IMG/VR virus record: IMGVR_UViG_3300025771_000021
Location: 1 to 64,000 of that record
Strand: one strand, 5' to 3'
Origin: a virus
DNA: 64,000 nucleotides
Shown: positions 3,594-22,074 of the stretch, one piece after another
Position numbering within the stretch: the stretch's first letter is position 1
Layout of the letters: each line of letters opens with the position of its first letter
The notes under the pieces: generated by a model
Databases searched by the model: none
Seen by the model: the letters and a program-made list of their open reading frames with translations, nothing else
Told to the model about the DNA's origin: nothing
Made by a program: the position numbers and the translations under genes

Positions 3594-4082
3594 ATGGAAA
3601 ATAAAATAGAACCACTTAAAGGATTTACATCGGATAATTTTATTATAGATGGCATGTTTAACAAAATAGAAGTTGATGATGTAGACAACTTAACTGATTT
3701 GTTAACCTGCCGAATAGATGTAAATAATAATCCTATTTTATTAGAATCTAAAAATTGTAATGAATTTCTTATAAGAAGTTGGACAAAGTTAGTCAAGCTT
3801 CATCTCAATATTAAAGATATAAAAACTCCACCGGTACAAAAATTTATTAAACCTTATATTATTTGTGCAATGCATCAGGATTTTTGGGTAACCAATAAGA
3901 ATAACTTTATAAGAGCAAACAACATACAATTAGGAGATGAACTCCTTACCTTTTCATTTGATACATCATTGACTGTTAGTAAAATAGAATTACTAAAAAA
4001 TGAAAATAAAAAAAACATATACGAACTAAAAAATATAACAGATAACAACAATTATTTTGTTAATGGTGTTTTAACAAGATAG
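3594..4082 (+). CDS. Orphan Hint-like (hedgehog/intein fold) protein, no visible splice junctions
   Basis: The C-terminal half of this 162-residue protein follows the intein/Hint pattern. CAMHQDFWVT (residues 91-100) resembles block B with His94, RANNIQLGDELL (107-118) matches the A-x-x-L-x-x-GD-x-L segment, VSKIELL forms the next strand, and NIYELKNI...YFVNGVL (141-160) resembles block F. The protein stops two residues after that block, so the C-terminal His-Asn and an extein are absent, and no nucleophilic Cys or Ser follows the start Met. Splicing is therefore not expected. A P4H-like oxygenase follows 35 nt downstream. Two more such proteins lie at 21.2-22.1 kb. The fold assignment is tentative. 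Confidence 0.5.
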   Translation: MENKIEPLKGFTSDNFIIDGMFNKIEVDDVDNLTDLLTCRIDVNNNPILLESKNCNEFLIRSWTKLVKLHLNIKDIKTPPVQKFIKPYIICAMHQDFWVTNKNNFIRANNIQLGDELLTFSFDTSLTVSKIELLKNENKKNIYELKNITDNNNYFVNGVLTR

Positions 4083-4117
4083 ATGTATATATCTAATTTG
4101 TGTAAAAAAAAATAAAA

Positions 4118-4702
4118 ATGTACAATAGATTTATTGAAAACTTCTTTTCTAAACAAGAGTGTGAAGATATAATAGAGTTTAGTAAAACAAAAAAACTAAT
4201 AAAATTAACATCGGTCTATATTGATAAAGATAATAATTTCATACCACATGAAGAAGAAGATGAGGAGAATAATAACAGAAGAAACGGTACGATGTATAGT
4301 GAAAGTGAAATCATAAAAACACCATCTTTAAAAAAAATATACGATAGAACTATTCAATATATAAATGACGAACCTCCCTACAAAGGTATGAGTTGCGATG
4401 GTATTCCTAAATTCACATTCAATAAATACGAAAAAGGAGATTACTTAAATCATCATTTTGATGGCCATGAAATCGAGTTGGGTGCGATTATAACAATAAT
4501 ATATCAACTAAATGATAATTACGATGGTGGGGATGTTACCTATATTATAAATGACGAGGAACTTATTGTTCCTAAAAAACAAGGTTCTATTTTTATATTT
4601 GATTCGAGAATAGTTCATTCTGTAAAAAAGGTTAAATATGGATGTAGATACTCTATGAATTCGTGGCCAGTTTCAAAGATTGAAAAAAAATCTTTGGTAT
4701 AA
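4118..4702 (+). CDS. 2OG-Fe(II) oxygenase, prolyl-4-hydroxylase-like
   Basis: The 194-residue protein has the P4H catalytic core. FNKYEKGDYLNHHFDGH (residues 101-117) contains the H113-x-D115 iron ligands. It is followed by a strand ITIIYQLN, YDGGDVTY (135-142), KKQGSIFIFDSRIVHSV (153-169) with the distal His167, and Arg177 for 2-oxoglutarate binding. The family hydroxylates prolyl or other peptide side chains and related small substrates. It lies between an orphan Hint-like protein and a promoter that starts the next unit. The enzyme class is secure; the target is unknown. Confidence 0.82.
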   Translation: MYNRFIENFFSKQECEDIIEFSKTKKLIKLTSVYIDKDNNFIPHEEEDEENNNRRNGTMYSESEIIKTPSLKKIYDRTIQYINDEPPYKGMSCDGIPKFTFNKYEKGDYLNHHFDGHEIELGAIITIIYQLNDNYDGGDVTYIINDEELIVPKKQGSIFIFDSRIVHSVKKVKYGCRYSMNSWPVSKIEKKSLV

Positions 4703-4703
4703 T

Positions 4704-4734
4704 TTGGCCAATTAAAAATAATTTCGTATATTTG
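4704..4734 (+). promoter_or_regulatory. Bacteroidota-type promoter
   Basis: TTG at 4704-4706 is followed by a 20-nt spacer and TATATTTG at 4727-4734, again preceded by TTCG. The small zinc-binding protein starts 17 nt downstream. Confidence 0.78.
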
Positions 4735-4750
4735 TACAAATAACTATTAA

Positions 4751-4915
4751 ATGATTATTATGGATATGGTACCTGACACTATTGAAAAATGCGTAAGTTG
4801 TGGAGAAGATACTCCATACAGATTCAACGAAAACATCTACATGAGAAATTGGTATGTAGAAGGAGCTGGACAACTTTGTGAAACTTGTTATAACAAAATA
4901 TATCAAACGGTATGA
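4751..4915 (+). CDS. Small zinc-ribbon-like protein
   Basis: The 54-residue protein has two CxxC pairs (Cys14/Cys17 and Cys43/Cys46) that would bind one zinc ion. It follows directly after an early-type promoter, so it is probably made early, perhaps to bind nucleic acid or a host protein (inference). An internal ATG at 4760 is an alternative start. Its stop overlaps the next ATG. Confidence 0.6.
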   Translation: MIIMDMVPDTIEKCVSCGEDTPYRFNENIYMRNWYVEGAGQLCETCYNKIYQTV

Positions 4916-5175
4916 CTGAAAAAGATTTAATTAATTTAGGATTCGATAAATTCGAACAAAATGATGAAGAAGATAGATTCTACTATTATTGTTATGATTT
5001 AAATGGTGAATCGGGAGGTGGTTCTTTGATATCTCTTGCTAATGATGAAGTAGAGGATGGTAATTGGAAAGTTTCTGCATGGGATATCCATGAGAACTTG
5101 GTATTCGAAGATAAAGAAGATGTCAAGATATACATTGATTTATTAGAAAGAAATATATTACAAAAAGAACTTTGA
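4912..5175 (+). CDS. Acidic hypothetical protein, 87 residues
   Basis: The soluble protein is rich in Asp/Glu and aromatic residues. It is coupled to the zinc-ribbon gene upstream (ATGA) and to the glycosyltransferase-like gene downstream (TTGA). No family is recognised. Confidence 0.55.
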   Translation: MTEKDLINLGFDKFEQNDEEDRFYYYCYDLNGESGGGSLISLANDEVEDGNWKVSAWDIHENLVFEDKEDVKIYIDLLERNILQKEL

Positions 5176-5864
5176 TACTATCATTTTTATCATATGGAGA
5201 AAAATATCACAAAGAGTTTTTAGAAATATCAAAAAACTTTAAAAAAGAAAATATAGTCGTTGCTTCTGATAAAATATTTGAAGAGTACCACACAGTATTA
5301 ATAAAAGACGATTTTAATTTTAATTTAAAAGAATTATCAATAACTGAATCTCTTGGGAAAGGTGATTCGGTTTTATATATAGATACTGATACTATTGTTA
5401 AAAATCCAAATTATAACATATTAAACGAATTAGATGATGGTATATATGTAAAGTGGATTGGTAATGAAGTTGAATATCTAAATGAAATAATAACATCTAA
5501 GAGTTTTAGCTATGGTAAAACTTCAAGAAGTGATGTAAACAAATATGGAAAAGAACTTTTTAATATAGTGGGTAAACCAATTAAGTTCATAGATGAGTGT
5601 ATATTATACATAAAATTAAAAGGGGATATAAAGAATGAATTTATAAAAACCTATAAAGATATAGTATATAAGTTTAAAAATAATACACCTTATAGAGAAA
5701 CCGATGATAAGTGGGGTGCAATGGAAGGGTGTATAATATGGTCGGTATCTGAATTATTAAACATTAATATAGATAGTACATCATTATCAGAGTTTTTTAA
5801 AGAATTTGAACACTATGGTCCAACATCAGGACATTCCACAAAAAATATAAAAACAGTTATTTAA
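5172..5864 (+). CDS. Glycosyltransferase-like protein (GT-A fold)
   Basis: The 230-residue protein opens with a beta strand (ILSFLSYG) and carries GKGDSVLYIDTDTIVKNPN (residues 63-80), in which D71-T-D73 is the metal-binding DXD motif of GT-A transferases. A conserved acidic/aromatic C-terminal half follows. The frame starts at TTG 5172, overlapping the previous TGA as TTGA; the first internal ATG would remove the nucleotide-binding strand. It probably transfers a sugar from a nucleotide donor in the cytoplasm. Donor and acceptor are unknown. Confidence 0.6.
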   Translation: MILSFLSYGEKYHKEFLEISKNFKKENIVVASDKIFEEYHTVLIKDDFNFNLKELSITESLGKGDSVLYIDTDTIVKNPNYNILNELDDGIYVKWIGNEVEYLNEIITSKSFSYGKTSRSDVNKYGKELFNIVGKPIKFIDECILYIKLKGDIKNEFIKTYKDIVYKFKNNTPYRETDDKWGAMEGCIIWSVSELLNINIDSTSLSEFFKEFEHYGPTSGHSTKNIKTVI

Positions 5865-5872
5865 ATATCAAT

Positions 5873-6211
5873 ATGAGATATAACGTCAATTTAGATAAAC
5901 AAGTTCTTTTAGAATTCCTTCTATTTGAATGGTGGGAGAAGTATTGGGATAAGTATTCAAAACAAGATAACATGAAATTGTGGTGGATGAAGCATATATA
6001 CCATTCTAAATACTTCGAAGAAGCTGTTGTGTATGTAGAACAGGGTGGTAATGTTATATGGGAGTTCGAAGATAAACATAAGTTTATATTAAACAAACTT
6101 ATCCCCAAATACAAAAAATATGGTAGAGAAGATTTCGTAAAGTTGTGGAAACAATATAAAAAAGAGTTCTATTCTCATCCAAGAAAGATAAAGCATAAGT
6201 TTGAATATTAA
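5873..6211 (+). CDS. Hypothetical protein rich in Trp, Tyr and Lys
   Basis: The 112-residue protein is strongly aromatic (EWWEKYWDKY near the start) and basic at the C-terminus. No membrane span or known motif is seen. Its stop overlaps the ATG of the FMN-binding gene (TAATG). Confidence 0.5.
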   Translation: MRYNVNLDKQVLLEFLLFEWWEKYWDKYSKQDNMKLWWMKHIYHSKYFEEAVVYVEQGGNVIWEFEDKHKFILNKLIPKYKKYGREDFVKLWKQYKKEFYSHPRKIKHKFEY

Positions 6212-6627
6212 TGATTAAACTATTTATTTTACTTTCCTTATTCAATACTAAATTAGAATCAAGAGCACAAAAGTATTTGGGTAAGTATTATGATAAAGAA
6301 GTATTACTTATAGAACAAAGGGATATCTCAAATGGTAAACTTTATTATATACCTAATACAAGTGATATTCTTTATATAGGTAAATCCCCATCAAGGTTTG
6401 AGGACTTTGACTTTATGGTTCTATTTGATAAAGATAAAACAATCAAGTTAGTTAAGATTTTAGTATATCGAGAAGATTATGGTGGAGAGATAGGAGGCAA
6501 ACGATGGTTAAGACAATTCATTGGATGGAAAGAACCTAAACCTTTTGTTGATGCAATAAGTGGAGCAACAATTTCGGTACATAGTTTAAAGACAAGTATT
6601 AACACATTATTAAAAGAAATTCGGTAA
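6211..6627 (+). CDS. FMN-binding domain protein (RnfG/NqrC-like)
   Basis: The 138-residue protein has the two halves of the FMN_bind domain: YREDYGGEIGGKRWLRQFIGW (residues 87-107) and VDAISGATISVHSLKTS (113-129). The segment D114-x-x-SGAT-x-S matches the consensus at which ApbE-type enzymes attach FMN covalently, with Ser122 at the acceptor position in place of Thr. The short hydrophobic N-terminus (MIKLFILLSL) may be a weak export signal or anchor. Such domains normally serve in Rnf/Nqr electron-transfer complexes or stand alone in Bacteroidota. No ApbE gene is seen here, so modification would depend on the host. Confidence 0.72.
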   Translation: MIKLFILLSLFNTKLESRAQKYLGKYYDKEVLLIEQRDISNGKLYYIPNTSDILYIGKSPSRFEDFDFMVLFDKDKTIKLVKILVYREDYGGEIGGKRWLRQFIGWKEPKPFVDAISGATISVHSLKTSINTLLKEIR

Positions 6628-6659
6628 TTATAATATAACAATTAAGCAAGGAAACAATC

Positions 6660-7160
6660 ATGAATACATTTACTCAGATACTAGCAGGATTCGGAGGATT
6701 AATATGGATAACAATAACATTCCCTCTATACATAACATACATCCTATGGAGAAACAATTGGAAAGTACTTCATAGTGTATCAGACAGTTGGTACATCCTA
6801 AAACAAAAAGAACAACACGAAGAGATATTCTTTACTCTATTCACTTACTTTCTCGGTATAGGACTTATACTTCAGTACTATCACTCCCCCTTATTCTTCT
6901 TAGGAGGTATGGGTTTATTTTGGGTAGGTACTCAAACACAATTCAGAGGAGAATCCATTAAGGGTACAATACACTATGTAGGAGCAGTCTTAGCCATAGT
7001 ACTATCCCTTATAGGATTACTTACTCAAGGTGTGTGGATTCCCTTACTCATATGTGGAGTAGGAACTGGTATTATGTACTTAGGAAAGATAAAGAACTTT
7101 ATTTGGTGGGTTGAGATGTTAGCCTTCCTAACTATAATATGGGGTCTATGGATATTATAA
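6660..7160 (+). CDS. Polytopic membrane protein
   Basis: The 166-residue protein has about five or six hydrophobic helices with short loops and a His/Asp/Trp-bearing segment (HSVSDSWY, residues 37-44). It would sit in the inner membrane. Its length and pattern loosely recall small DUF998-like membrane proteins, but I cannot confirm this. An SD-like AGCAAGGA lies upstream. Confidence 0.6.
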   Translation: MNTFTQILAGFGGLIWITITFPLYITYILWRNNWKVLHSVSDSWYILKQKEQHEEIFFTLFTYFLGIGLILQYYHSPLFFLGGMGLFWVGTQTQFRGESIKGTIHYVGAVLAIVLSLIGLLTQGVWIPLLICGVGTGIMYLGKIKNFIWWVEMLAFLTIIWGLWIL

Positions 7161-7209
7161 TGTGGTTAATGGTTCTGTGGATGGGTAATCAACTAATCCT
7201 CAACTCACG

Positions 7210-7365
7210 ATGAAAAGAGGGTGGAGATTATGGGCTAAAGCTCTTGGAGGTAAGGAAGGGAATAATAGAGAAGCTGATATAGTTGCTCTATGGAGAACTT
7301 TGATTGTGTTACAAGCAGTTATTACGAATGCATTCATAGTATGGAATATACTGAGGAAGTGGTAA
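7210..7365 (+). CDS. Small membrane-anchored protein, 51 residues
   Basis: The frame begins MKRGWRLWAKALG, then has a polar KEGNNREAD segment, and ends in one hydrophobic helix (LIVLQAVITNAFIVWNIL). I recall similar miniproteins of the form WRLWAKALG...ITN in marine T4-like phages, which supports a real gene, though this is from memory. The role is unknown. Confidence 0.55.
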   Translation: MKRGWRLWAKALGGKEGNNREADIVALWRTLIVLQAVITNAFIVWNILRKW

Positions 7366-7416
7366 CATATTTCCTATTAACTGAATATATAGAGATAAGA
7401 GGAAACATATTTCCTA
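7364..7416 (+). repeat. Two direct copies of AACATATTTCCTA
   Basis: The same 13-mer occurs at 7364-7376 and 7404-7416, exactly 40 bp apart, in the short non-coding gap before the next gene. It could be a repeated protein-binding site. Nothing else in the gap is recognisable. Confidence 0.5.
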
Positions 7417-7437
7417 AATACTATCAATAGAAAGAAG

Positions 7438-7644
7438 ATGAAAAATACTTTTTTGACCGACCAAAAAATTTTTAAAAAGACCGACACTAACTTAGTGAGT
7501 ATACTATTAAGTGAAGGGTTATTATCTTTTCTTTTAACTTTTTTTCCGTTAAGTGCTGGTAGTGCTTATAACTATACAAAAATTAAAAAAATAATTCAAA
7601 AAAATATTAACAACCTCGATTATGGAGAAAAGAAGAGAATGTAA
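7438..7644 (+). CDS. Possible small protein with one hydrophobic segment
   Basis: The 68-residue frame is preceded by AGAAAGAAG. It has a hydrophobic stretch at about residues 22-44 and a Lys-rich C-terminal helix. It overlaps the next gene by 23 nt, which weakens the call slightly. Confidence 0.42.
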   Translation: MKNTFLTDQKIFKKTDTNLVSILLSEGLLSFLLTFFPLSAGSAYNYTKIKKIIQKNINNLDYGEKKRM

Positions 7645-7981
7645 TGTTTGTGGGAAGAACAAACGATATTCCAAATTCAAACACAACGAAAAGAAAACTT
7701 GTCTGAAGTGTGAAACTCGTTGGTGGATGCAATTCCTAAGAAAGTTGATACAAGAGAGAAGATTATCACCACAAGAAAGAATTGGAAACCGATTGGGATA
7801 TATGGGTTCTGCTTTTATCATGTCATCCCCATACCTCCTCCCCTACGATAACATTGGTGTATATACTTACTTGATTGGTGCGTTATTATCTTTACCACAA
7901 GTTTGGTTAGCTAAACAATGGAACTTGGTAGTGATTAATTTAAATCTATTAGTAGGATACGGCCTATATCTTTTCTCGTGA
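7622..7981 (+). CDS. Zinc-ribbon plus three-helix membrane protein
   Basis: The 119-residue protein starts with a four-Cys zinc site (Cys7, Cys10, Cys27, Cys30) on a basic background, followed by three hydrophobic helices (about residues 60-75, 80-96 and 101-118). The cytosolic zinc knuckle fused to a small membrane bundle is unusual. The helices recall half-transporters of the PQ-loop type only vaguely. Confidence 0.58.
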   Translation: MEKRRECNVCGKNKRYSKFKHNEKKTCLKCETRWWMQFLRKLIQERRLSPQERIGNRLGYMGSAFIMSSPYLLPYDNIGVYTYLIGALLSLPQVWLAKQWNLVVINLNLLVGYGLYLFS

Positions 7982-7989
7982 TATTTATA
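7981..7989 (+). promoter_or_regulatory. ATATTTATA motif (candidate late-type promoter element)
   Basis: This nonamer matches the element found upstream of the virion genes. The next ATG is only 4 nt away, so if it is active the first full leader would belong to the protease gene at 8121. Confidence 0.35.
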
Positions 7990-7993
7990 TCTA

Positions 7994-8172
7994 TGAGATA
8001 TAACCCATTCACATGGGAACAGAAGTTATACTTAACCTTTGTTATTCTTGGAAGAATATTCCAAAATTTAATTCTCATCGTTTACCACTTCACCTTGATG
8101 AAGTATTATCAATTAAAACAATGGTTACATACAAAATACATAAAGTTACGTTATCTATTGTTCTCGTATTAG
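7994..8172 (+). CDS. Possible small membrane protein
   Basis: A 59-residue frame with a hydrophobic centre (LYLTFVILGRIFQNLILIVYHF) and a basic C-terminus overlaps the protease start by 52 nt. The N-terminus could extend 16 nt upstream. It may be real or may only be the leader of the protease transcript. Confidence 0.38.
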
Positions 8173-8597
8173 TTACTCTAAATGTTTTAGCATTAACTAA
8201 TTGGGAATATTATCTTTTCTTTCGTTCTGATAAATTGTTTATCGATGAACGAGTAGAAGAAGATGTAAACGATGTGATAAAGGGGTTTTATAAACGAGGT
8301 GTTCCATTACATCAAATCGGTGAGGAATCATTTATGGTTTCTATCGATGATTGTATGCCTCCCTTTTATTGGGGAATAGCTGAAGGAACTGGTATACCCG
8401 ATAAAGTTCTTATTAGTCTCAATAGAGAAATTCTCAAATCAACTACCGAATTTAGAAAGTGGGTCATTGCTCACGAACTTGGACACGAACTTGGATACTT
8501 CCATGAAGATACTTTATACATCATGGGTCAGTATTTAGGAAAGGGGTCATATGATAAAGCTATGGATGAGTTGATAAAAAAAATTAAAAATAAATAA
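8121..8597 (+). CDS. Membrane-anchored metzincin-type metalloprotease
   Basis: Starting at ATG 8121 gives a 158-residue protein with an N-terminal signal anchor (about residues 9-26). The motif HELGHELGYFH (118-128) has the exact metzincin spacing HExxHxxGxxH, and a Met follows at residue 135 in YIMGQ, suitable for the Met-turn. A longer frame from 8013 exists but would place 36 polar residues before the anchor. The catalytic domain should lie outside the cytoplasmic membrane. At this size it is a minimal member. A lysis or envelope role is inferred. Confidence 0.75.
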   Translation: MVTYKIHKVTLSIVLVLVTLNVLALTNWEYYLFFRSDKLFIDERVEEDVNDVIKGFYKRGVPLHQIGEESFMVSIDDCMPPFYWGIAEGTGIPDKVLISLNREILKSTTEFRKWVIAHELGHELGYFHEDTLYIMGQYLGKGSYDKAMDELIKKIKNK

Positions 8598-8605
8598 TAT
8601 AAATT

Positions 8606-8998
8606 ATGAATTTTAACGATTGGAATGATGACGATGATTTCGAAAATGAAGATGGTAACCATAGAAATGGATATTTCGATAGAATAAGACAAAATGAAAA
8701 AGAAATGTTGAAAATAAATATGGTACGTCATTTTGAATTTCCACCTTCTTTAGAAGAGTGGAGAGAATTTTTTGGTGAACCCACCGATGAAGATTGTGCC
8801 GATATAACACAAGCTTATATAAAACAACACCATCATTATGGAGAAAATCATATTGCTCAATTCGTAGATGCATTCGATATTAATTGGGTAAGATATTTAT
8901 TATGGTACAATGAATCAGTTGAAGAATATGAACTATGTGCAATACTAAAATCACACATAGATATAAACATCAAATCTCATAAAAAAAGTATTAAATGA
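8606..8998 (+). CDS. Acidic hypothetical protein, 130 residues
   Basis: The N-terminal 20 residues are almost entirely Asp, Glu and Asn. A His-rich segment (KQHHHYGENH, about residues 73-82) and a hydrophobic WVRYLLWY helix follow. No family is recognised. It is coupled to the next gene by ATGA. Confidence 0.55.
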   Translation: MNFNDWNDDDDFENEDGNHRNGYFDRIRQNEKEMLKINMVRHFEFPPSLEEWREFFGEPTDEDCADITQAYIKQHHHYGENHIAQFVDAFDINWVRYLLWYNESVEEYELCAILKSHIDINIKSHKKSIK

Positions 8999-9630
8999 AA
9001 GAATTAAAGCTTTGTGATAAAATGTCATATTGGTTATCTAGATTTGACACTAAAAATTTAAAATCGATTCTATCAGACACCATATCTTTATCAGAAAAAA
9101 ATAAAGCCAACAATGGAGCTCACATGGTATCTAAGCACAAAAATCTAAATGAATTTAATGAATGGATAAACAAAAAGGAAAATCATTTATCGGAACTTTG
9201 TCATCATGCATTCTCAGTTTGTAAGGGGATTACTAAAAAGGAATGGGAATCGATTGAAAGTACATTTTGGATTAATATAGTTAAAGCTAAAAATCCTGTT
9301 CAAAGGGGGAAAGTCGATGGTAGGGATGATTTAGTATGGCACAATCATACCGAAATAAATAAAAAATATGAAGAAAATCCACCAGACTATACATTCGTAT
9401 TTTATTTACAAATGCCAAATAATTTAAAAAATGATGATGGTATGATTTATTTAAGAGGTTCTAAGGGTGAGATAGTTTCATTCCTTCCCAAAGTTGGTGA
9501 CTTATTAATTTTGGATGGAAATTGTTGGCATTCACCACAAACAGCATTAAATTCAGACATGGATAGAATTGTACTTGCCGGTAATTTTTATTTTAAACCA
9601 AATTTAAAAAAAATGAAAACATTATTATGA
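8995..9630 (+). CDS. 2OG-Fe(II) oxygenase-like protein, paralogue of 874-1464
   Basis: The 211-residue protein shares the layout of the protein at 874-1464: LVWHNHTEI, then PDYTFVFYLQMPNN, DDGMIYLRGSKGE, LPKVGDLLILDGNCWHSPQ with the distal His, and DRIVLAGNF with the Arg. It belongs to the small putative 2OG oxygenases. It is coupled on both sides by ATGA overlaps, to the acidic protein before it and the SGNH-like protein after it. The substrate is unknown. Confidence 0.7.
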   Translation: MKELKLCDKMSYWLSRFDTKNLKSILSDTISLSEKNKANNGAHMVSKHKNLNEFNEWINKKENHLSELCHHAFSVCKGITKKEWESIESTFWINIVKAKNPVQRGKVDGRDDLVWHNHTEINKKYEENPPDYTFVFYLQMPNNLKNDDGMIYLRGSKGEIVSFLPKVGDLLILDGNCWHSPQTALNSDMDRIVLAGNFYFKPNLKKMKTLL

Positions 9631-10532
9631 AAAAAAAAATGTTTTCATTTGGATGTTCTTATACCAACTACCTTTGGCCGACCTATGCTGATTATATAGG
9701 TACCATGTTTGAAAATTATTATAACCAAGGGATATCGGGTTCTGGTAATAAACGAATATTTAATATTGTTTGTTCACATCTACATAAGTTTACTAAAAAT
9801 GATTTTGTTGTAATCCAATGGAGTGGGTTAGAAAGAAACGATAAAATATTACCACCCACCCACAATAGAATCGATACATTCTCTAATAGACGAATTGATG
9901 ATGGAACTTGGTTTTCAAATGGTTCTGTATTTGAAAACAATGGATTTTTTTCGGAAGAATATCGTACTAATTATTTTAGTTATGATGAACAATACGAAAT
10001 GTTAATATCATATTGTAAATGTTTAAAGATGATATTAGATAATATAGGATGTAAGTATTTGTTTATTTTTATGTCAAACCCACTAAATCCTTTGTTAAAG
10101 AAACTCAACGGAGAGCCATTGGCTATATATTATGAATCGGAACTAAGAAATAGAATGTTAGAATCTTTTTATAAAAAATATAATCACGAACATTTTAATC
10201 GAGAATTCATAAGAAACCTTAACTTTTATAAAAAATGTTTATTTCATCTACAAACAGAAATAGAACAAAATGAAGAATCAAATTATACAGCATCAGATTT
10301 GAATGAGCATTTTATCAAAGATTATCATCCTAAATCACATACTCACTATAAAATAGCCCTTAAACTAATTAAAGATTTAGATATAATTGGAGACCATCCT
10401 CTTAAAGAAGATAAATTAATGTCTTTATCAAAAGAAATTGACAATAAATTTACATATGATAATCTGGAAAAAATTGAATACGATTATAAAACCATACAGG
10501 TTGAATCACACAATTCAATCAGAGATTTATAA
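9627..10532 (+). CDS. SGNH hydrolase-like protein, large version
   Basis: The 301-residue protein carries FSFGCSYTN (residues 6-14, Ser11 as nucleophile), QGISGSGNKRIF (34-45) with block II Gly and Asn, and KDYHPKSHTHY (231-241) with Asp232 and His234. The 55 residues after the catalytic His are an extra helical tail. An ATG at 9639 is an alternative start. It is translationally coupled to the oxygenase before it, suggesting they act on the same molecule. Confidence 0.65.
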   Translation: MKKKMFSFGCSYTNYLWPTYADYIGTMFENYYNQGISGSGNKRIFNIVCSHLHKFTKNDFVVIQWSGLERNDKILPPTHNRIDTFSNRRIDDGTWFSNGSVFENNGFFSEEYRTNYFSYDEQYEMLISYCKCLKMILDNIGCKYLFIFMSNPLNPLLKKLNGEPLAIYYESELRNRMLESFYKKYNHEHFNREFIRNLNFYKKCLFHLQTEIEQNEESNYTASDLNEHFIKDYHPKSHTHYKIALKLIKDLDIIGDHPLKEDKLMSLSKEIDNKFTYDNLEKIEYDYKTIQVESHNSIRDL

Positions 10533-10568
10533 TATAAAAATATTTAATAATAAAAACAACATTTAATA

Positions 10569-11447: not shown

Positions 11448-11452
11448 AATAT

Positions 11453-11483: not shown

Positions 11484-11511
11484 CTATGTAAATGATTAAG
11501 ATATAAAAGTT

Positions 11512-14224: not shown

Positions 14225-14236
14225 ATTACAAATATT

Positions 14237-14267: not shown

Positions 14268-14285
14268 TAATATAAAACTTAAAAT

Positions 14286-14474
14286 ATGAACCAATGGAAT
14301 TATCGAGAAATGGGTTCTCGAAACAAAAAGACTGGTAAGTTAAATTACTATCAAGTTACAGTAACAGATTATAAGATATCCGATTGTTCGTGTCCAGCAA
14401 GAGGGTTTAGAAGATATACCCCATGTAAACATATGAAACGTTTACACGAAAAGCTAGGACACTTAGCTATATAA
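14286..14474 (+). CDS. SWIM zinc-finger mini-protein
   Basis: The 62-residue protein contains C34-x-C36 and C47-x-H49, the CxC...CxH zinc site of SWIM domains, in the context DCSCPARGFRRYTPCKHM. SWIM modules bind DNA or proteins. This one is a stand-alone domain under an early-type promoter, so an early regulatory or DNA-metabolism role is plausible but unproven. Confidence 0.72.
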   Translation: MNQWNYREMGSRNKKTGKLNYYQVTVTDYKISDCSCPARGFRRYTPCKHMKRLHEKLGHLAI

Positions 14475-14487
14475 AAGGAAAATAAAA

Positions 14488-14748
14488 ATGAGATTACCTA
14501 TAATAAAGCATTTAGTAGAGAACCCAGATTTCGATGAAGATTACTTCGAAGAAACTGTGTATGTGTTAGTATCACTTGCCGATGCACGAGGAATCAAAGA
14601 TGAAGAACTCGATGTAATTGGTGAGTTGGTATCTAACCTTGAAGGTGCCATTGATGTTAAAAAACAAATCAAAGATGGTGTACCTCAGAAAGAAGCACTC
14701 AATTCTTTTATGCAAAGAGTAATGGGTTCATTAAAAAAGATACAATAG
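14488..14748 (+). CDS. Small conserved-looking protein (DUF6952-like)
   Basis: The 86-residue protein has the frame RLPIIKHLVEN...KDEELDVIGELVSNLEGAI...KEALNSFMQRV. I recall this pattern from a small Bacteroidota family (DUF6952), which would support the host assignment, but it was not checked. An AAAAGGAAAA sequence precedes the start. Confidence 0.58.
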   Translation: MRLPIIKHLVENPDFDEDYFEETVYVLVSLADARGIKDEELDVIGELVSNLEGAIDVKKQIKDGVPQKEALNSFMQRVMGSLKKIQ

Positions 14749-14751
14749 TAT

Positions 14752-15633: not shown

Positions 15634-15641
15634 TAAAAAAT

Positions 15642-15672
15642 TTGTATAATTAAAAAATAATTCGTATATTTG
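15642..15672 (+). promoter_or_regulatory. Bacteroidota-type promoter
   Basis: TTG at 15642-15644, a 20-nt spacer and TATATTTG at 15665-15672. It begins the operon of acidic small proteins at 15696. Confidence 0.78.
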
Positions 15673-15695
15673 TAAAAATTAATTAAATTAAAATT

Positions 15696-16067
15696 ATGGA
15701 CAAAGTTTATGTAAGACAGGCTGAACGATATACAGTATGGGAAGCCACAGAACCAATCGAAGTTGATGTAGAAAAACTTCGTAAATGTGACCCACCTTTC
15801 GAGGGTGAGAACGAACAAGACCTTTTAGAATACCTAAAAGATAATGTTTGGGGAAATTATGATTGGGCTGAAAATGAAACCAATCAAGAAGTTTATGGTG
15901 AAGATGCAGCTATGGAACTAACCTTTGATGAGGTGTACGATGTAGAAGTATATTCAGATACTCGTGAGAAGTACCAACAAGCTTGGTTAGATGTTGGAGT
16001 ACCAAACGATGAGTATCGTAAGATGGGTGGATTTGAAGTAAAGGCAACTAACGTAGATGAAGCATAA
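15696..16067 (+). CDS. Acidic hypothetical protein, 123 residues
   Basis: A strongly acidic, aromatic protein directly after a good promoter. Several phage early inhibitors are small and acidic, but no specific family is recognised. Confidence 0.6.
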   Translation: MDKVYVRQAERYTVWEATEPIEVDVEKLRKCDPPFEGENEQDLLEYLKDNVWGNYDWAENETNQEVYGEDAAMELTFDEVYDVEVYSDTREKYQQAWLDVGVPNDEYRKMGGFEVKATNVDEA

Positions 16068-16070
16068 GTT

Positions 16071-16337
16071 ATGGCAATAGATAAAGACAAAGCAAAAGAG
16101 TTAGTTAACGATGCGAGATACATTCACGATTCGTTAAAAACATATCTCAAAGATGATAGTATAGAAGATTCATTATTATTCTTCTATGGGCACAAATGTA
16201 TTCAGTTAGCATCTGAACTTTTTCAAGAGGTAAATTTGAGAGATATAACTAAGAAACAAAAAGGTTATACTTATGATTTACTAAATGCATTTAAGGAAAA
16301 GTATCCAGAGTTTGAAGAAGAGTTCAATAAACAATAG
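16071..16337 (+). CDS. Hypothetical protein, 88 residues
   Basis: A helical soluble protein starting 4 nt after the preceding stop and ending 3 nt before the next gene. No motif is recognised. Confidence 0.58.
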   Translation: MAIDKDKAKELVNDARYIHDSLKTYLKDDSIEDSLLFFYGHKCIQLASELFQEVNLRDITKKQKGYTYDLLNAFKEKYPEFEEEFNKQ

Positions 16338-16339
16338 TT

Positions 16340-16942
16340 ATGGCAAGTGAAATGACATCCTTTGTTAAGGTTAAGAACGCTAACAAAGAAGTATATCAAA
16401 AGTTAAAAGAAATCTTCACACCAAGTGAAGGTAAGTACGATGTAAACTCAATCGAGTTAATCAATCGTGTTTGGGGAAGAAACTATTCCTATAAAGAAGA
16501 AAACGAAAATTGGGATGAAGAAAAAGATTGGCCATCTTGGGAAGAGTGGGATAAACTACTTGGACCTAAGTGGTGTAATGGAGAAGAGTTCTATATGGAT
16601 GAAGGAGATGATGAAGGTTCTTTTATTCTCAGAGCTGCATATGCAGTACCACAAGTTCTACTCGAAAAGATAGCAAAAACTCTTAGTGAGATTAAAGAAG
16701 ATTGTTATTTAGTTGGTAACTACGAACACGAAGATTATGACCCAGTTGGTGCATTCTTATACGCAAAAGATTGGGATGATATCGAAGATTTAGATTCGGG
16801 TTATGATTCAGAAGATTTATGGGAAAATGATGAACTTAGAGATGATATGTGGGATGAAGTTTCTGAATTAGAAAAAGATATTGAAAATGCGTATTTTGAG
16901 TACTTAGAAGATAAAAAGAATAATCCTGAAGATTACGAATGA
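16340..16942 (+). CDS. Very acidic protein, possibly DUF1281/ferredoxin-like fold
   Basis: The 200-residue protein has many Trp/Asp/Glu residues. Segments such as NRVWGRNYSY, GPKWC and the C-terminal YDPVGAFLYAKDW recall the Api92/DUF1281 family of phage and mobile-element proteins. That comparison is from memory. The last 60 residues are nearly all acidic and helical. Confidence 0.55.
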   Translation: MASEMTSFVKVKNANKEVYQKLKEIFTPSEGKYDVNSIELINRVWGRNYSYKEENENWDEEKDWPSWEEWDKLLGPKWCNGEEFYMDEGDDEGSFILRAAYAVPQVLLEKIAKTLSEIKEDCYLVGNYEHEDYDPVGAFLYAKDWDDIEDLDSGYDSEDLWENDELRDDMWDEVSELEKDIENAYFEYLEDKKNNPEDYE

Positions 16943-17127
16943 GAAAATTAATTTATAACGTAACAGATGGTGATGAAAGATATACTTTAGAGTTTATCAC
17001 CGATAGAACTCCTGAATGGACAGAGCAACAATATACAAGACATCGTATTAATTGTAGAATGGATTTAATTTCAAATGAAACCACAGAAGAACAAAAACCG
17101 ATATCAAGAGAAGTTGGATTGGGATGA
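16939..17127 (+). CDS. Small hypothetical protein, 62 residues
   Basis: The frame starts on the ATGA overlap with the acidic protein and has a short beta-rich N-terminal half. Its last 53 nt overlap the next frame. No family is recognised. Confidence 0.45.
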   Translation: MRKLIYNVTDGDERYTLEFITDRTPEWTEQQYTRHRINCRMDLISNETTEEQKPISREVGLG

Positions 17128-17278
17128 TATGACTCATGGTGAGGCATCCCACCACATCGGTAAAAAGACTACCGAAAAAGTTCACAAATCAAAAAAAGAT
17201 TATTCTCGAAAAGGAAAATCTAAAAAGAAATGGGATAGGTTCGATGATGATGATTTCTATCCAGATTCAAGAATATAA
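17075..17278 (+). CDS. Small basic/acidic protein, 67 residues
   Basis: A Lys-rich middle (KKTTEKVHKSKKDYSRKGKSKKK) followed by an acidic tail suggests a nucleic-acid-binding peptide. It overlaps the previous frame by 53 nt, so one of the two starts may be misplaced. Confidence 0.45.
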   Translation: MKPQKNKNRYQEKLDWDDMTHGEASHHIGKKTTEKVHKSKKDYSRKGKSKKKWDRFDDDDFYPDSRI

Positions 17279-17305
17279 ATAATATATACTTATATACTTG
17301 AAAAG

Positions 17306-17379
<74 letters not shown>

Positions 17380-17415
17380 CTACATTAAACTAAATTAATG
17401 TAATTAAATTAAATT

Positions 17416-18315
17416 ATGAAAAAAGTAATTTTACTATTTTTACTTTCAGTTATAGGAATAACTGTAAGTTGTGAGAAATCAGATTGGTTCTCACCAGAGG
17501 ATGTCGATTCCATCAAAGCAAGCTATCAAACTTATATTAATGATTTGACAGATGCTAAAAATGAATTGACAACTCAAGTAACAGACCTTACAACACAAGT
17601 TACTAATCTCACAACCGAGGTTGAAGAATTAGAAGCTTCTGTAAGTACTCTGACCGAATCAAATACTACGTTAATCGCTGAGAACGCAACAGTTCAAACA
17701 TTAACTGATAACGTAGCTACTTTGACTGCACAATTAGCAACCTTAACTTCTGAGAAAGAAGATTTGGATGCACAGATTGTGACTTTAACAACATCTAACA
17801 CAACTCTAACAACAAGTAACACAACGTTAACAGACCAAGTTACAACACTTACATCAAGTGTAACTGCTCTACAACTTGAGATTACTGATTTAGAAACAGA
17901 GGCAACTACGTTAGAGGGACAGATTACTTCATTAAAAGATGAAGTATTAACATTTAAAAACTTTAAACTATTGAGAGAGAAACTTGATACAATGGTGGCA
18001 GCAACGATTACTGATACTAATCTAAATGCAGCTATTGATTCTATCTCTATTGGTTTAACTTCTTCAAGTGTATCAGCAACTGTATTGAAAGGATTGATTA
18101 GTACTGAAGCAGATTGGTTATTTGATAACGCAATCAAGACAGGTACTACATCTATGACTACGGCAGTAAGTACATTCTATGATACATCCACAGATACAAA
18201 TGTAATTAACTTTAGAACTTTAGTTGGTGAACTAACAACTACTTGGAACACTGCTAAAGAAAGTACGTTAATCACATGGTTCATCGAATTCATTAAAGAA
18301 TACGAGAATCTATAA
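17416..18315 (+). CDS. Coiled-coil lipoprotein
   Basis: The 299-residue protein has a lipoprotein signal ending in the lipobox ITVSC (Cys19). It is followed by about 140 residues of heptad-like repeats with Leu/Val at core positions and Thr/Ser/Asn between (for example TTLTTSNTTLTDQVTTL), then a C-terminal alpha/beta-like domain. It should be anchored in the outer membrane and reach into the periplasm. A spanin-like or receptor-masking role is possible. The Thr-rich heptads are unusual. The gene sits alone between tRNA-Ala and tRNA-Glu. Confidence 0.7.
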   Translation: MKKVILLFLLSVIGITVSCEKSDWFSPEDVDSIKASYQTYINDLTDAKNELTTQVTDLTTQVTNLTTEVEELEASVSTLTESNTTLIAENATVQTLTDNVATLTAQLATLTSEKEDLDAQIVTLTTSNTTLTTSNTTLTDQVTTLTSSVTALQLEITDLETEATTLEGQITSLKDEVLTFKNFKLLREKLDTMVAATITDTNLNAAIDSISIGLTSSSVSATVLKGLISTEADWLFDNAIKTGTTSMTTAVSTFYDTSTDTNVINFRTLVGELTTTWNTAKESTLITWFIEFIKEYENL

Positions 18316-18342
18316 TTGACTGCCAGGCAAGCGTTGGTTTAT

Positions 18343-18360
18343 GGTTGTACCTTAACAACC
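18343..18360 (+). other. Hairpin upstream of tRNA-Glu
   Basis: GGTTGT (18343-18348) pairs with ACAACC (18355-18360) around a 6-nt loop. An alternative longer stem uses TTGGTT and AACCAA. It follows the lipoprotein stop and lacks a clear T-tract, so it may be a weak terminator or a processing signal for the tRNA. Confidence 0.4.
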
Positions 18361-18366
18361 AATTTT

Positions 18367-18438
18367 GGCCCCTTCGTCTATCGGTTAGGACGCCAGGTTT
18401 TCATCCTGGAAAGAGGAGTTCGATTCTCCTAGGGGCTA
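18367..18438 (+). tRNA. tRNA-Glu (anticodon TTC)
   Basis: The acceptor GGCCCCT pairs with AGGGGCT. The anticodon stem CCAGG/CCTGG holds loop TTTTCAT, and the T arm is AGGAG-TTCGATT-CTCCT. It reads GAA, the favoured Glu codon of the phage genes. Confidence 0.92.
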
Positions 18439-18454
18439 CTAAACATTTTAAATT

Positions 18455-18793
18455 ATGGTTACAACTATATTAATAGTATCTTTATCAATCTGTATAATTC
18501 TTTTATCAAGAGAAATTATCAAATTACAAAAAAGAGTTGATGTTCTTAACAAAGAAACCAACACAAGAATTTCGGTAACAGACCAACAAACTCATTTAAG
18601 AATTAATGAGGAGGTATCTCAACTTCTTGATATCATTAAACAGAATGCAGATAATACAGATACTTCAATAGAATATCAGTTAAAAGAATTGGAAAAGAAA
18701 ATTAAATCACTTATTCCACCTACCAACGATGAGTTGATGATGGAGGTTAAAAAAATGAGAGATGATTTTTTTGCATTAAGACAAAACTTTTAA
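18455..18793 (+). CDS. Single-pass membrane protein with coiled coil
   Basis: The 112-residue protein has an N-terminal transmembrane helix (residues 3-19) followed by a long charged coiled coil. That topology is shared with inner-membrane spanins, and the coiled-coil lipoprotein lies just upstream across a tRNA gene. The pairing is an inference from topology and position only. Confidence 0.55.
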
Positions 18794-18798
18794 AAAAA

Positions 18799-18883
18799 GG
18801 AGAGTTGGCAGAGTGGTCGATTGCGGCAGTCTTGAAAACTGTTGAGGGTAACACCTCCGGGGGTTCGAATCCCTCACTCTCCG
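18799..18883 (+). tRNA. tRNA-Ser (anticodon TGA)
   Basis: The acceptor GGAGAGT pairs with ACTCTCC. The anticodon loop is CTTGAAA, a long variable arm (about GTTGAGGGTAACACCTC) is present as expected for tRNA-Ser, and the T arm is GGGGG-TTCGAAT-CCCTC. Length is 85 nt. Confidence 0.92.
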
Positions 18884-18896
18884 CAAACAACATAAT

Positions 18897-19103
18897 ATGA
18901 AAAGATATCCTCATCAATGTGGACCAATAGAATATATTAACAATGAGGCTTATCAAATTGTTGCGAGATATTCCATAACAGAAGTTAAAGATGCTCAATT
19001 AATCAAAGAATGGTTGGGGTGTGATACCGTATTTAAATCAAACAGACAAAATCTATTTATATTTTGTAATCACATAGAAGAGATAACTTGGGAAACGATA
19101 TAG
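18897..19103 (+). CDS. Small hypothetical protein, 68 residues
   Basis: A soluble alpha/beta protein just after tRNA-Ser. Two Cys residues (Cys8, Cys42) and a third near the end are present but form no known motif. Confidence 0.52.
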
Positions 19104-19105
19104 TT

Positions 19106-19648
19106 ATGAAAATTCTGATAATTGCAATACCCCGTTCTGGTTCAACTTCGTTGATGAGCAATATAGCTAATATTTTATCTTTAAAACCAGTACCCGAACC
19201 ATTTAATCCTACATTTACAAAAAAGGTTAATTATACTATTGGTGAAGATGATGTTGTTGTTAAAATAATTACAGGACAGGATGATAGATATTCGGATATA
19301 ATTGATTGGGATTATTGGAAATCATTTATATTGGATTTTATTCCACAATTTGATAAAACAATATTGTTAACAAGAATGGATACTAAAGCTCAATTAGAAT
19401 CATTCTCATATGCTAGTCATTTTAAAAAAGGATGGTTTGAATCTTATACTTATGAATCACCACCATACGAAGTGATATCTGATTGTAAAGAATATTTAGA
19501 TTCAAGTATTGAAGCTATTAAAGAAGTAATAAGAAAATTAAAAAATAAAGGAATACATTTGGAAATAAAATATTATGAAGATTTTTTCGATGTATCTTCA
19601 GAAAAAAGACTAAGAAAATCATCCAAAAGCAATAATACTTTAATTTAA
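19106..19648 (+). CDS. Sulfotransferase-like P-loop protein
   Basis: The start at ATG 19106 (rather than 19088, inside the previous gene) gives a 180-residue protein opening with MKILIIAIPRSGSTSLM. PRSGSTS (residues 9-15) is the 5'-phosphosulfate-binding loop of PAPS sulfotransferases, and ILLTRMD takes the place of the usual RDP strand. It is shorter than most family members and may be a minimal or eroded version. It lies just before the dCMP deaminase. Confidence 0.6.
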   Translation: MKILIIAIPRSGSTSLMSNIANILSLKPVPEPFNPTFTKKVNYTIGEDDVVVKIITGQDDRYSDIIDWDYWKSFILDFIPQFDKTILLTRMDTKAQLESFSYASHFKKGWFESYTYESPPYEVISDCKEYLDSSIEAIKEVIRKLKNKGIHLEIKYYEDFFDVSSEKRLRKSSKSNNTLI

Positions 19649-19661
19649 TATACTTATATAT

Positions 19662-20117
19662 ATGAGATGGGTACAATACTTCAGAGAACTTGCACATACA
19701 GTCAAGAAAAAATCCAAAGATAAGAACACACAAATTGGTGCTGTAATTGTTGGTAAGGATAAAGAAATTGTATCTACTGGTTATAATTCTTTTCCTCGTG
19801 GTATTAATGATAATCTCGATGAAAGACAAGAAAGACCAGAAAAGTATTATTGGTTCGAACATGGTGAAAGAAATGCAATCTACAATGCAGCAAGAATAGG
19901 AGTTTCTACCAAGGGAACAACTATGTACCTTTCATGTGGAGTTCCTTGTTCAGATTGTGCAAGGGGAATCATAAATGCAGGAATCGTTCGTATCTTTTGT
20001 GAACGAGGTGGTGGAGCAAAAGGACCTAAATGGGCAGATTCAGCCGAACGTAGTTGGGAGATGTTAGAAGAAGCTGGTGTTAAAGTTTGTTTTTACGATG
20101 ATGATTTCCATGTCTAA
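19662..20117 (+). CDS. Deoxycytidylate (dCMP) deaminase
   Basis: The 151-residue protein has the zinc-dependent deaminase signature: HGERNA (residues 67-72, His67 ligand and Glu69 proton shuttle) and PCSDC (95-99, Cys96 and Cys99 ligands). The N-terminal NTQIGAVIVG and GYNSFPRG segments are typical of dCMP deaminases. The enzyme converts dCMP to dUMP for dTTP synthesis, a common T4-like function. The radical SAM gene begins inside its last codons. Confidence 0.88.
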   Translation: MRWVQYFRELAHTVKKKSKDKNTQIGAVIVGKDKEIVSTGYNSFPRGINDNLDERQERPEKYYWFEHGERNAIYNAARIGVSTKGTTMYLSCGVPCSDCARGIINAGIVRIFCERGGGAKGPKWADSAERSWEMLEEAGVKVCFYDDDFHV

Positions 20118-21192
20118 TTTGGTTAATAAAGATACATATTGTGCCTTACCATTCAATCACCTTTACGTTGAATCCACAGGTGACTTAAAACCATGTTGTA
20201 TTGGTAGTAGATTTAACTCATATACAAATTTAAAAGATATGAGTATCGAAGAGGCATTTAACACGGAAGAATATAAAAAACTTAGATTGGATTTACTTAA
20301 TGGAATAAAAAATCCTTTGTGTAATTCATGCTGGAATAAAGAAGAGAAGGGTATACTATCTCATAGACAACAAGTAGGTCAAACTGAGAATGTTCTTGGA
20401 GTGTGGGAGGAATACTATACGAAAGATGGGTATATGAAACCTGAGTTTGAGTATCTTGATATTAGATTTTCAAACTTATGTAATTTTAAGTGTATAATGT
20501 GTACTCATGATTATTCTTCATCTTGGTATGAAGAAAGACATAAAAAAGAAGGTAGACCAAAAGTTTTAAAAGTCAAAGAAAATATCGTATCGGAATTAAT
20601 CCCATATATAAAAAAATTAAAAAGTATATATTTTGCAGGTGGAGAGCCTCTGATTATGCCCGAACATTTCGAGTTACTTTCTTATCTACATAAACATAAT
20701 AGAGATATTTCTATTGTTTACAATACAAATTTATCTGTTATAAAATATGATACTACTGATTTAGTCAATATGTGGAAAGACTTCAAATCAGTAATGGTTC
20801 AAGTTAGTGTTGATGGTATGTATGAAATCGGAGAAAAAATAAGAGAGGGGTTTAAGACAGATAGATTTATAGAAAATATAAAGGTAATTAAAAATAATAA
20901 TATTACATACCACATATCACATACTACAGCAACTTATAATGTAAAAAATATTTATAACTTTATAAATGAACTATTAGATAGTGGTGTTATAAATAATACA
21001 AATGAGGTAAGTATAAATAACTTTGTAGTTACTCCTGAAAAATATTGTATATCAAACTTATCAACGGAAGAAAAAATAGAAATATACAACTATTTAATAG
21101 ATGTAAAAAGTAAAATAGAAGGAGATAGGATAATAGGTCAGATTGATGAAATTATAAAATTTCTTGACCTAAACTTAGAAAAAGTCATATAA
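20110..21192 (+). CDS. Radical SAM enzyme with N-terminal twitch/SPASM-like cluster
   Basis: From ATG 20110 the protein has 360 residues. Cys11, the CC pair at 29-30, Cys71 and Cys74 form an N-terminal auxiliary-cluster region. CNFKCIMC (124-131) is the CxxxCxxC site for the SAM-binding 4Fe-4S cluster, and YFAGGEPL is the GGE motif that contacts SAM. This is the twitch-domain radical SAM layout. The start overlaps the dCMP deaminase stop by 8 nt, and the Hint-like genes follow within 1 nt. The likely substrate class is a peptide or sugar; it cannot be specified. Confidence 0.85.
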   Translation: MSNLVNKDTYCALPFNHLYVESTGDLKPCCIGSRFNSYTNLKDMSIEEAFNTEEYKKLRLDLLNGIKNPLCNSCWNKEEKGILSHRQQVGQTENVLGVWEEYYTKDGYMKPEFEYLDIRFSNLCNFKCIMCTHDYSSSWYEERHKKEGRPKVLKVKENIVSELIPYIKKLKSIYFAGGEPLIMPEHFELLSYLHKHNRDISIVYNTNLSVIKYDTTDLVNMWKDFKSVMVQVSVDGMYEIGEKIREGFKTDRFIENIKVIKNNNITYHISHTTATYNVKNIYNFINELLDSGVINNTNEVSINNFVVTPEKYCISNLSTEEKIEIYNYLIDVKSKIEGDRIIGQIDEIIKFLDLNLEKVI

Positions 21193-21193
21193 A

Positions 21194-21625
21194 ATGTTAA
21201 AAGAAGGTACTTTAATACAGTTAGAAAAAACCAAAAAACAAATTGAAAGAATAAATCTAAGAGAAGAAGTAGTATCCTATGATGTAGAGAGTGCATCATT
21301 TTCTAACAATAGTATTGTTTGTTCTTATTATTCAAACATAGTAGATTCTTTCAGTAAAATAACTTTTGAAAATGAAGAATTTCTAATATGTGGTGGTCAT
21401 ACAAAAATATATACAAAACAAAGAGGTATTATATTAGTAGATAATCTTAGATATGGTGATATGTGTTTACGATTAGAAATAGTAAATAACAAAAAAATAA
21501 AACAATGGGTAAGAGTTAAATACATAACATTTGAAGATAATAAGGATGAAATATTTAGATTTATTCAGAGGTTAAGTGGATTTCAATTCTTTTTTGCAAA
21601 TAATTATTGTATTGGAACACCGTAG
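21194..21625 (+). CDS. Orphan Hint-like protein, first of a tandem pair
   Basis: The 143-residue protein shows FLICGGHTKIYTKQRGIILV (residues 63-82, block-B-like with His69), VDNLRYGDMCLRL (82-94, the L-x-x-GD strand), VKYITF, and RLSGFQFFFANNYCIGT (126-142), a degenerate block F ending with the protein. No nucleophile follows Met1 and no terminal Asn/extein is present. It begins 1 nt after the radical SAM stop, so the two are surely co-expressed. The fold is inferred from the pattern shared with 3594-4082 and 21628-22074. Confidence 0.48.
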   Translation: MLKEGTLIQLEKTKKQIERINLREEVVSYDVESASFSNNSIVCSYYSNIVDSFSKITFENEEFLICGGHTKIYTKQRGIILVDNLRYGDMCLRLEIVNNKKIKQWVRVKYITFEDNKDEIFRFIQRLSGFQFFFANNYCIGTP

Positions 21626-21627
21626 AA

Positions 21628-22074
21628 ATGAATAGATTTTTATCAAAAAATATGTCAATTACTTTAGATAATAGAGTAAAAACAATAGAGGAGTTATTCC
21701 ACAATTCAGAAAAGATACTTTCTTATGTTAATGGTGATATTAGGGAATCTGATTTGAATGTTAACAAACTCGAATCCCAAACCCCTTATTTTTTAAACAT
21801 GATATCTTTTGTACCTCCAAAAGAAGATAAACATAAACACATGACTATTTTGGTAGGTGATGGTATATATTTTTACTTAAATAATAAAGATAAATGGGTA
21901 TGTTCCTCTGATTTATGGCGTGGTGATTCTGTAAAACTATTTAATGGAGAAGAGCTTATTGTAAATGAAATACTATCAAAAAAAGAAAATGAAATATATA
22001 TTATAGAAGATATATTACCACACAATACTTTTTTTATAAATGGAATATTATCTAGTACGATGAAGTTAAAATGA
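21628..22074 (+). CDS. Orphan Hint-like protein, second of a tandem pair
   Basis: The start at ATG 21628, 2 nt after the previous stop, gives 148 residues. The C-terminal half has MTILVGDGIYFYL (72-84, Asp in place of the block B His), SSDLWRGDSVKL (93-104), VNEIL (112-116) and EIYIIEDI...TFFINGIL (122-141), closely parallel to the Hint-like protein at 3594-4082. The N-terminal half is unrelated to the other two. The stop overlaps the next ATG. Confidence 0.48.
   Translation: MNRFLSKNMSITLDNRVKTIEELFHNSEKILSYVNGDIRESDLNVNKLESQTPYFLNMISFVPPKEDKHKHMTILVGDGIYFYLNNKDKWVCSSDLWRGDSVKLFNGEELIVNEILSKKENEIYIIEDILPHNTFFINGILSSTMKLK

What the first reader, a model, noticed from the sequence alone, without database searches (positions are those of the whole stretch)
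3594..22074. Three orphan Hint-like proteins that appear unable to splice
Proteins at 3594-4082, 21194-21625 and 21628-22074 share a C-terminal pattern: a block-B-like strand, L-x-x-GD-x-x-L, a V-x-x-I strand, then Y/F-x-(I/L)...(F/Y)F-(V/I/A)-N-G/N ending the protein. Established knowledge: inteins and hedgehog domains need an N-terminal Cys/Ser and a C-terminal His-Asn or acceptor. Here no nucleophile follows Met1, the last residues stop at or just past block F, and one copy has lost the block B His. All three sit beside modification enzymes (a P4H-like oxygenase or a radical SAM gene). Inference: a Hint fold reused as a binding or scaffold module in a phage modification system, which I do not know to be described.
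Basis: partly seen in the sequence, partly recalled or inferred. Interest (0 to 1): 0.78.

Follow-up and report, generated by a model that had tools for sequence, protein, structure and literature searches.

The report
Dead intein-fold proteins in a phage
A marine phage carries three small free-standing proteins that have the fold of self-splicing inteins but lack every residue needed to cut or splice, and similar dead copies recur in related phages, which suggests the fold is being reused as a plain structural or binding module.

Summary
Confirmed and extended, with one part rejected. The three window proteins are complete, stand-alone Hint (Hedgehog/intein) domains. A profile built only from Hints of related phages, window left out, finds them (E 2e-10, 5e-6, 6e-5; next best ORF about 0.02). 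AlphaFold models of two (pLDDT 91.5 and 88.7) match bacterial intein-like domains and inteins at Z 16-19. No splicing chemistry is left: the Cys1 position holds Met1, Gly or Arg/Phe; the terminal His-Asn is missing or replaced (Gly-Thr, Ser-Thr); there is no room for exteins. They look like real genes: open frames, coding bias like their neighbours, coupled starts and stops. Sibling phages carry a large protein with tandem Hints in the same conserved gene block, and three further dead stand-alone Hints occur in relatives. Each dead copy is closest to a canonical Hint, but of different subtypes, so they probably arose repeatedly. The link to modification enzymes is not supported: sibling radical SAM genes lack adjacent Hint genes, and such enzyme genes are common with or without Hints. 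Best reading: Hint modules released from a tandem-Hint phage protein and kept as non-catalytic binding or structural folds, perhaps like ataxin-1's AXH module. The partner is unknown.

The parts
3594..4082 (+). P0001, stand-alone Hint-fold protein; Gly10 at the Cys1 position, Arg162 at the penultimate His position, no residue at the Asn position
21194..21625 (+). P0002, stand-alone Hint domain; Met1 at the Cys1 position, block B His kept, His-Asn replaced by Gly141-Thr142; starts 1 nt after the radical SAM stop codon
21628..22074 (+). P0003, stand-alone Hint-fold protein; Phe4 (or Arg3) at the Cys1 position, block B His lost, His-Asn replaced by Ser143-Thr144; starts 2 nt after the P0002 stop, and its stop overlaps the next start (ATGA)
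22071..22229 (+). 52-aa conserved gene (MTNEKITEELLIK...); in L003 and L004 it directly follows the radical SAM gene
20077..21192 (+). radical SAM protein upstream of P0002; context, association with Hint genes not conserved
22254..23111 (+). 285-aa protein of the conserved block that neighbours Hint genes in siblings (function unknown)
23138..23488 (+). 116-aa protein; in most siblings with Hints it closely precedes the tandem-Hint protein or a stand-alone Hint
4118..4702 (+). 2OG-Fe(II) oxygenase downstream of P0001; context only

Best explanation
The three proteins are free-standing Hint-fold domains, most likely derived from the tandem Hint modules of a large phage protein that sits in this gene block in sibling phages. 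They have lost the N-terminal nucleophile and the terminal His-Asn and have no flanking exteins, so they should be unable to splice or cleave (shown from sequence and models, not by assay). They look like real genes whose fold has been kept while the sequence diverged (open frames, codon bias and models show the state; that it reflects selection is inferred). They most likely act as non-catalytic binding or structural modules, for example contacting the products of the neighbouring conserved genes or other Hint-bearing phage proteins (inferred; partner unknown). Dead stand-alone Hints have probably arisen more than once in this phage group (inferred from differing nearest canonical subtypes).
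For: Profile made without window sequences: E 2.2e-10, 4.9e-6, 5.5e-5, with a gap to 0.017. AlphaFold models of P0001 (pLDDT 91.5, pTM 0.85) and P0003 (88.7, 0.84) match BIL domains and inteins: P0001 Z 19.1, rmsd 1.9, 137 aligned with 6y75; P0003 Z 16.9, rmsd 1.9, 129 aligned with 2in0. Catalytic positions are empty in the alignment and the structural alignments. Open frames exceed the proteins by only 5-8 codons, so no N-extein fits (for context, 1). Coding bias z 4.4-6.0, like neighbouring genes; chance of an open 143-codon random frame about 2e-6. Starts and stops are coupled. Siblings carry tandem Hints in the same gene block. Dead stand-alone Hints also at L003 9595-10251, L024 13053-13559 and L147 6083-6568; a terminal HN is found in 1 of 7 stand-alone versus 166 of 193 fused Hints (Fisher p 8e-5; 1e-4 after thinning; phylogeny not corrected). 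Nearest canonical Hints differ between orphans, and the L147 orphan is closest to a Hint of the gene just upstream of it.
Against: The alignments used for folding contained canonical Hints, which can pull a model towards that fold (the high confidence over the whole length argues against a forced fit). P0002 was not modelled. No close homologues of the three were found, so selection could not be measured. No partner or phenotype is known; drifting remnants are not excluded.
Confidence: 0.6

Rival explanations
1. Decaying remnants: Hint modules that lost their parent protein and are drifting towards loss, without function.
For: All catalytic residues are gone, divergence from canonical Hints is high (roughly 11-26% identity), the copies lack close relatives, and no MKGTLF-type parent protein is found in the contig.
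Against: Three intact ORFs in an AT-rich genome (8.7% chance of a stop per random codon), coding bias like neighbours, coupled starts and stops, confident whole-domain folds, and dead stand-alone copies in other lineages.
Confidence: 0.22
2. Parts of a peptide or protein modification pathway with the adjacent radical SAM and 2OG oxygenase enzymes (substrates, scaffolds or carrier-like proteins).
For: P0002 starts 1 nt after the radical SAM stop codon; P0001 ends 35 nt before a 2OG oxygenase gene.
Against: Sibling copies of the radical SAM gene have no Hint gene beside them. 2OG and radical SAM genes are about as frequent near blocks with and without Hints (counted). The window has seven such genes, so chance adjacency is easy.
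Confidence: 0.08
3. They act in trans on other Hint proteins of the phage, pairing with or regulating active Hints that lie elsewhere in the genome.
For: In L003 and L147 a dead stand-alone Hint lies directly downstream of a protein with active-looking Hints.
Against: No canonical Hint is found in the 74.6-kb contig; the contig may be incomplete.
Confidence: 0.08

Closest known systems
Bacterial intein-like (BIL) domains (2LWY; T. thermophila BUBL1 BIL2, 6Y75/6TMM)
   Same: Same fold over the whole domain; the nearest solved structures for P0001 and among the nearest for P0003.
   Different: BIL domains keep catalytic residues and cleave or splice flanking proteins (PMC7664689, PMC4031507); these proteins have neither the residues nor flanks.
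Tandem-Hint phage protein of sibling phages (MKGTLF-type; Hint part similar to phrog_21587)
   Same: Encoded in the same gene block; canonical Hints of this kind are the nearest sequence relatives of the stand-alone proteins.
   Different: Its later Hints keep Cys1 and mostly His-Asn and are fused to a ~460-aa N-terminal region; the first Hint usually lacks Cys1.
AXH module of ataxin-1 and HBP1
   Same: By sequence the phage Hint profile matches ataxin-1 AXH (E 8e-12) and Pfam AXH matches 31 of 44 members of the Hint alignment. AXH mediates protein-protein interactions (PMC9515312).
   Different: The match covers only about the first 109 of 144 profile positions; no AXH hit was listed for the window proteins themselves, and they keep the C-terminal part of the Hint fold.
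[quoted passage not shown]
   Same: Also lack Cys1.
   Different: They are inserted in exteins and still splice, using a +1 or block F nucleophile (PMC7664689, PMC4031507); these proteins have no exteins and no terminal Asn.

Membership tests
Hint (Hedgehog/intein) fold superfamily | Hint beta-fold over the whole domain | tested here: met
   Models of P0001 and P0003, best Z 19.1 and 16.9 to BIL domains and inteins; P0002 by profile only, positions 4-143 of 147, E 2.2e-10
Intein (class 1) | N-terminal Cys or Ser nucleophile | tested here: not met
   Gly10, Met1, Phe4/Arg3 at this position
Intein (class 1) | C-terminal His-Asn followed by a +1 nucleophile | tested here: not met
   Arg-stop, Gly-Thr-Pro, Ser-Thr-Met
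Intein (class 1) | Inserted between two exteins | tested here: not met
   Open frames only 5-8 codons longer than the proteins
Class 2/3 inteins (no Cys1) | Terminal Asn and exteins kept | tested here: not met
BIL domains | Catalytic Cys1 with cleavage or ligation of flanking protein | tested here: not met
   No Cys1, no flanks; activity itself not tested
Hedgehog autoprocessing (Hog) domain | Cys1 after an N-terminal domain | tested here: not met
   No Cys1 and no N-terminal domain
AXH module | Match to the AXH profile | tested here: inconclusive
   Most canonical phage Hints match; no AXH hit was listed for the three proteins
Phage modification system with radical SAM / 2OG enzymes | Conserved adjacency to the enzyme genes | tested here: not met
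Non-catalytic binding module | Binds a specific partner | not testable with these tools
   needs a pull-down or the structure of a complex

The most novel reading that the evidence does not exclude
Marine phages of this group repeatedly turn self-processing Hint modules into free-standing, catalytically dead Hint proteins with a new binding or virion role, a prokaryotic counterpart of the AXH module and a possible picture of how AXH itself arose.
Probability: 0.33. Interest if true: 0.72.

Novelty: new variant of a known kind. Interest (0 to 1): 0.5.

Why it matters
Hint domains are known for self-processing chemistry. Stand-alone Hint proteins that have lost all of it, found several times in one phage group beside relatives that still have it, give a natural series from active module to dead fold. 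That makes the reuse of an autoprocessing fold as a plain binding module directly testable.

Tried and rejected
Close homologues of the three proteins: none in IMG/VR; in the phage collection only two weak partial matches to P0002, E 0.4-0.6. Fusion to the radical SAM protein: rejected, since the radical SAM protein ends at the same place in siblings. Parent tandem-Hint protein elsewhere in this contig: no match to its N-terminal part, though the contig may be incomplete. Fold of that N-terminal region: no PDB sequence match and no Pfam family shared by more than one member. Dead stand-alone Hints among named phages: the L024 copy has no match; I also looked at the gene list of Lactobacillus phage P1, whose 143-aa protein appears among the viral structure matches, without identifying the gene. 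Papers on inactive or phage Hints: nothing on stand-alone dead Hints seen in the lists. L161 4959-5459 is stand-alone but canonical, so it was not counted as dead. The Cys assigned to position 1 of the L024 orphan lies outside the aligned region and was not relied on. HHalign on single sequences covered only the last 46-53 residues of P0001 and P0003 (probabilities 76 and 51), which is why the models mattered. A phylogenetic tree was not built: the domains are short and diverged.

Full report
WHAT WAS CLAIMED. Three short proteins in the window were said to share a Hint-like C-terminal pattern, to lack splicing residues, and to sit beside modification enzymes. The window is part of a 74.6-kb virus record.

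THE OBSERVATION. The three ORFs are at the stated coordinates. P0001 and P0003 are detectably related to each other (30% identity over about 84 residues, E 1.3e-5). Pfam PT-HINT reaches P0001 at 3.5e-4, under its curated cut-off, and the C-terminal part of phrog_21587 reaches P0002 at 1.4e-5. No close relatives were found in IMG/VR, and the named phages gave only two weak partial matches to P0002, E 0.4-0.6.

RELATED PHAGES. A search with the radical SAM protein and with the PhoH-like protein brought in sibling phages with the same gene order. Several carry a large protein beginning MKGTLF... with Hint domains at its C-terminus, many of them canonical (Cys1 ... His-Asn). A profile built only from those canonical Hints already hit the three window proteins (E 1.2e-6, 2.4e-6, 3e-3) ahead of the background at 0.16. 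After enlarging the set with a Hint search of IMG/VR and rebuilding the profile with the window and known orphan sequences left out, the values are 2.2e-10 (P0002, positions 4-143 of 147), 4.9e-6 (P0001, 52-144) and 5.5e-5 (P0003, 8-144), while the next ORF scores 0.017.

FOLD. AlphaFold models made with an alignment of the stand-alone proteins and canonical Hints are confident for P0001 (pLDDT 91.5, pTM 0.85) and P0003 (88.7, 0.84). Their best solved matches are bacterial intein-like domains and inteins (Foldseek; VIA-align Z 19.1, rmsd 1.9, 137 aligned for P0001 with 6y75; Z 16.9, rmsd 1.9, 129 aligned for P0003 with 2in0). The alignment could bias the models; the confidence over the whole length argues against a forced fit. 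P0002 was not modelled and rests on the profile match.

DEAD ACTIVE SITES. In the alignment Met1 of P0002 stands exactly where Cys1 stands in canonical copies. In the structural alignments, residue 10 (Gly) of P0001 and residue 4 (Phe; residue 3, Arg, in one of them and in the sequence alignment) of P0003 take the place of intein residue 1, and the ends are Arg-stop (P0001) and Ser-Thr (P0003) where His-Asn should be; P0002 has Gly-Thr. The block B His is present in P0001 and P0002 and lost in P0003. In-frame stops leave room for only 5-8 further codons upstream (open frames of 170 and 148 and 156, against 162, 143 and 148 residues), so there is no N-extein, and the proteins end at the domain end.

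REAL GENES. Codon bias in frame is z 4.4, 4.5 and 6.0 over shuffles, like neighbouring genes, and a random frame of 143 codons in this 30.7% GC sequence would be open with probability about 2e-6. P0002 starts 1 nt after the radical SAM stop codon, P0003 2 nt after the P0002 stop, and the P0003 stop overlaps the start of a conserved 52-aa gene.

GENE CONTEXT. In L003 and L004 the same radical SAM gene is followed directly by the 52-aa gene; the two Hint genes of the window are an extra pair at that junction. In siblings the Hint genes keep company with the block dCMP deaminase - 52-aa gene - 285-aa-type gene - 116-aa-type gene. 2OG oxygenase genes are near this block with a Hint in 11 of 14 loci and without in 9 of 14; radical SAM genes in 4 of 14 and 3 of 14 (my count; loci are fragments and related).

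RECURRENCE. Among 202 Hint matches in the fetched loci, seven proteins are stand-alone (230 aa or less, complete): the three here, L003 9595-10251, L024 13053-13559, L147 6083-6568 and the canonical L161 4959-5459. A terminal His-Asn is found in 1 of 7 stand-alone and 166 of 193 fused Hints that reach the domain end (Fisher p 8e-5; 1e-4 on a thinned set; relatedness not corrected). Each stand-alone protein is closest to a canonical Hint, but of different position or subtype; the L147 copy is closest to a Hint in the gene just upstream. I read this as several independent births from tandem-Hint proteins; no tree was built. A search of 45 further records added no new dead stand-alone copy.

MECHANISM. 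No self-processing is expected from these proteins as encoded. What remains is a stable predicted fold with coupled expression. The best-supported use is a non-catalytic binding or structural role; the partner is unknown. AXH of ataxin-1 offers a parallel: the phage Hint profile matches ataxin-1 AXH by sequence at 8e-12 over about its first 109 positions, Pfam AXH matches 31 of 44 members of the Hint alignment, and AXH is a protein-protein interaction module (PMC9515312). No paper in the library holds both 'AXH domain' and 'intein', which does not show that the link is unknown. Drift of remnants remains a serious rival.

KNOWN LITERATURE. BIL domains lack the +1 nucleophile and mostly cleave; type A keeps His-Asn (PMC7664689, PMC4031507). 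Class 2 and 3 inteins lack Cys1 but still splice (same papers). I found no description of stand-alone dead Hints in phages; many journals are not in the library.

Noticed in passing
L034, L023, L180, L024 and other loci with tandem-Hint proteins: In 58 phage proteins with two or more Hints, the first Hint lacks Cys1 in 56 while all 110 later Hints have it; in 5 the Asn of the first Hint is directly followed by Cys1 of the next.
   Followed up: partly
L045 18006, L050 18938, L058 18435, L065 13810, L067 13418, L070 18976: A Hint without Cys1 but ending His-Asn-Thr forms the N-terminus of collagen-like Gly-X-Y repeat proteins.
   Followed up: no
alignment A4 (phage Hint domains of loci L023-L216): Phage Hint domains match the ataxin-1/HBP1 AXH module by sequence (Pfam 31 of 44 members; ataxin-1 chains E 8e-12), which suggests AXH is a Hint relative.
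   Followed up: partly
window 20077-21192, 24909-25964, 32753-34075, 34065-35273; 874-1464, 4118-4702, 8995-9630: Four radical SAM and three 2OG oxygenase genes in one phage window.
   Followed up: partly
window 3239-3577: A 112-aa protein just upstream of P0001 matches only the last 57 positions of the 559-position family phrog_4098.
   Followed up: no
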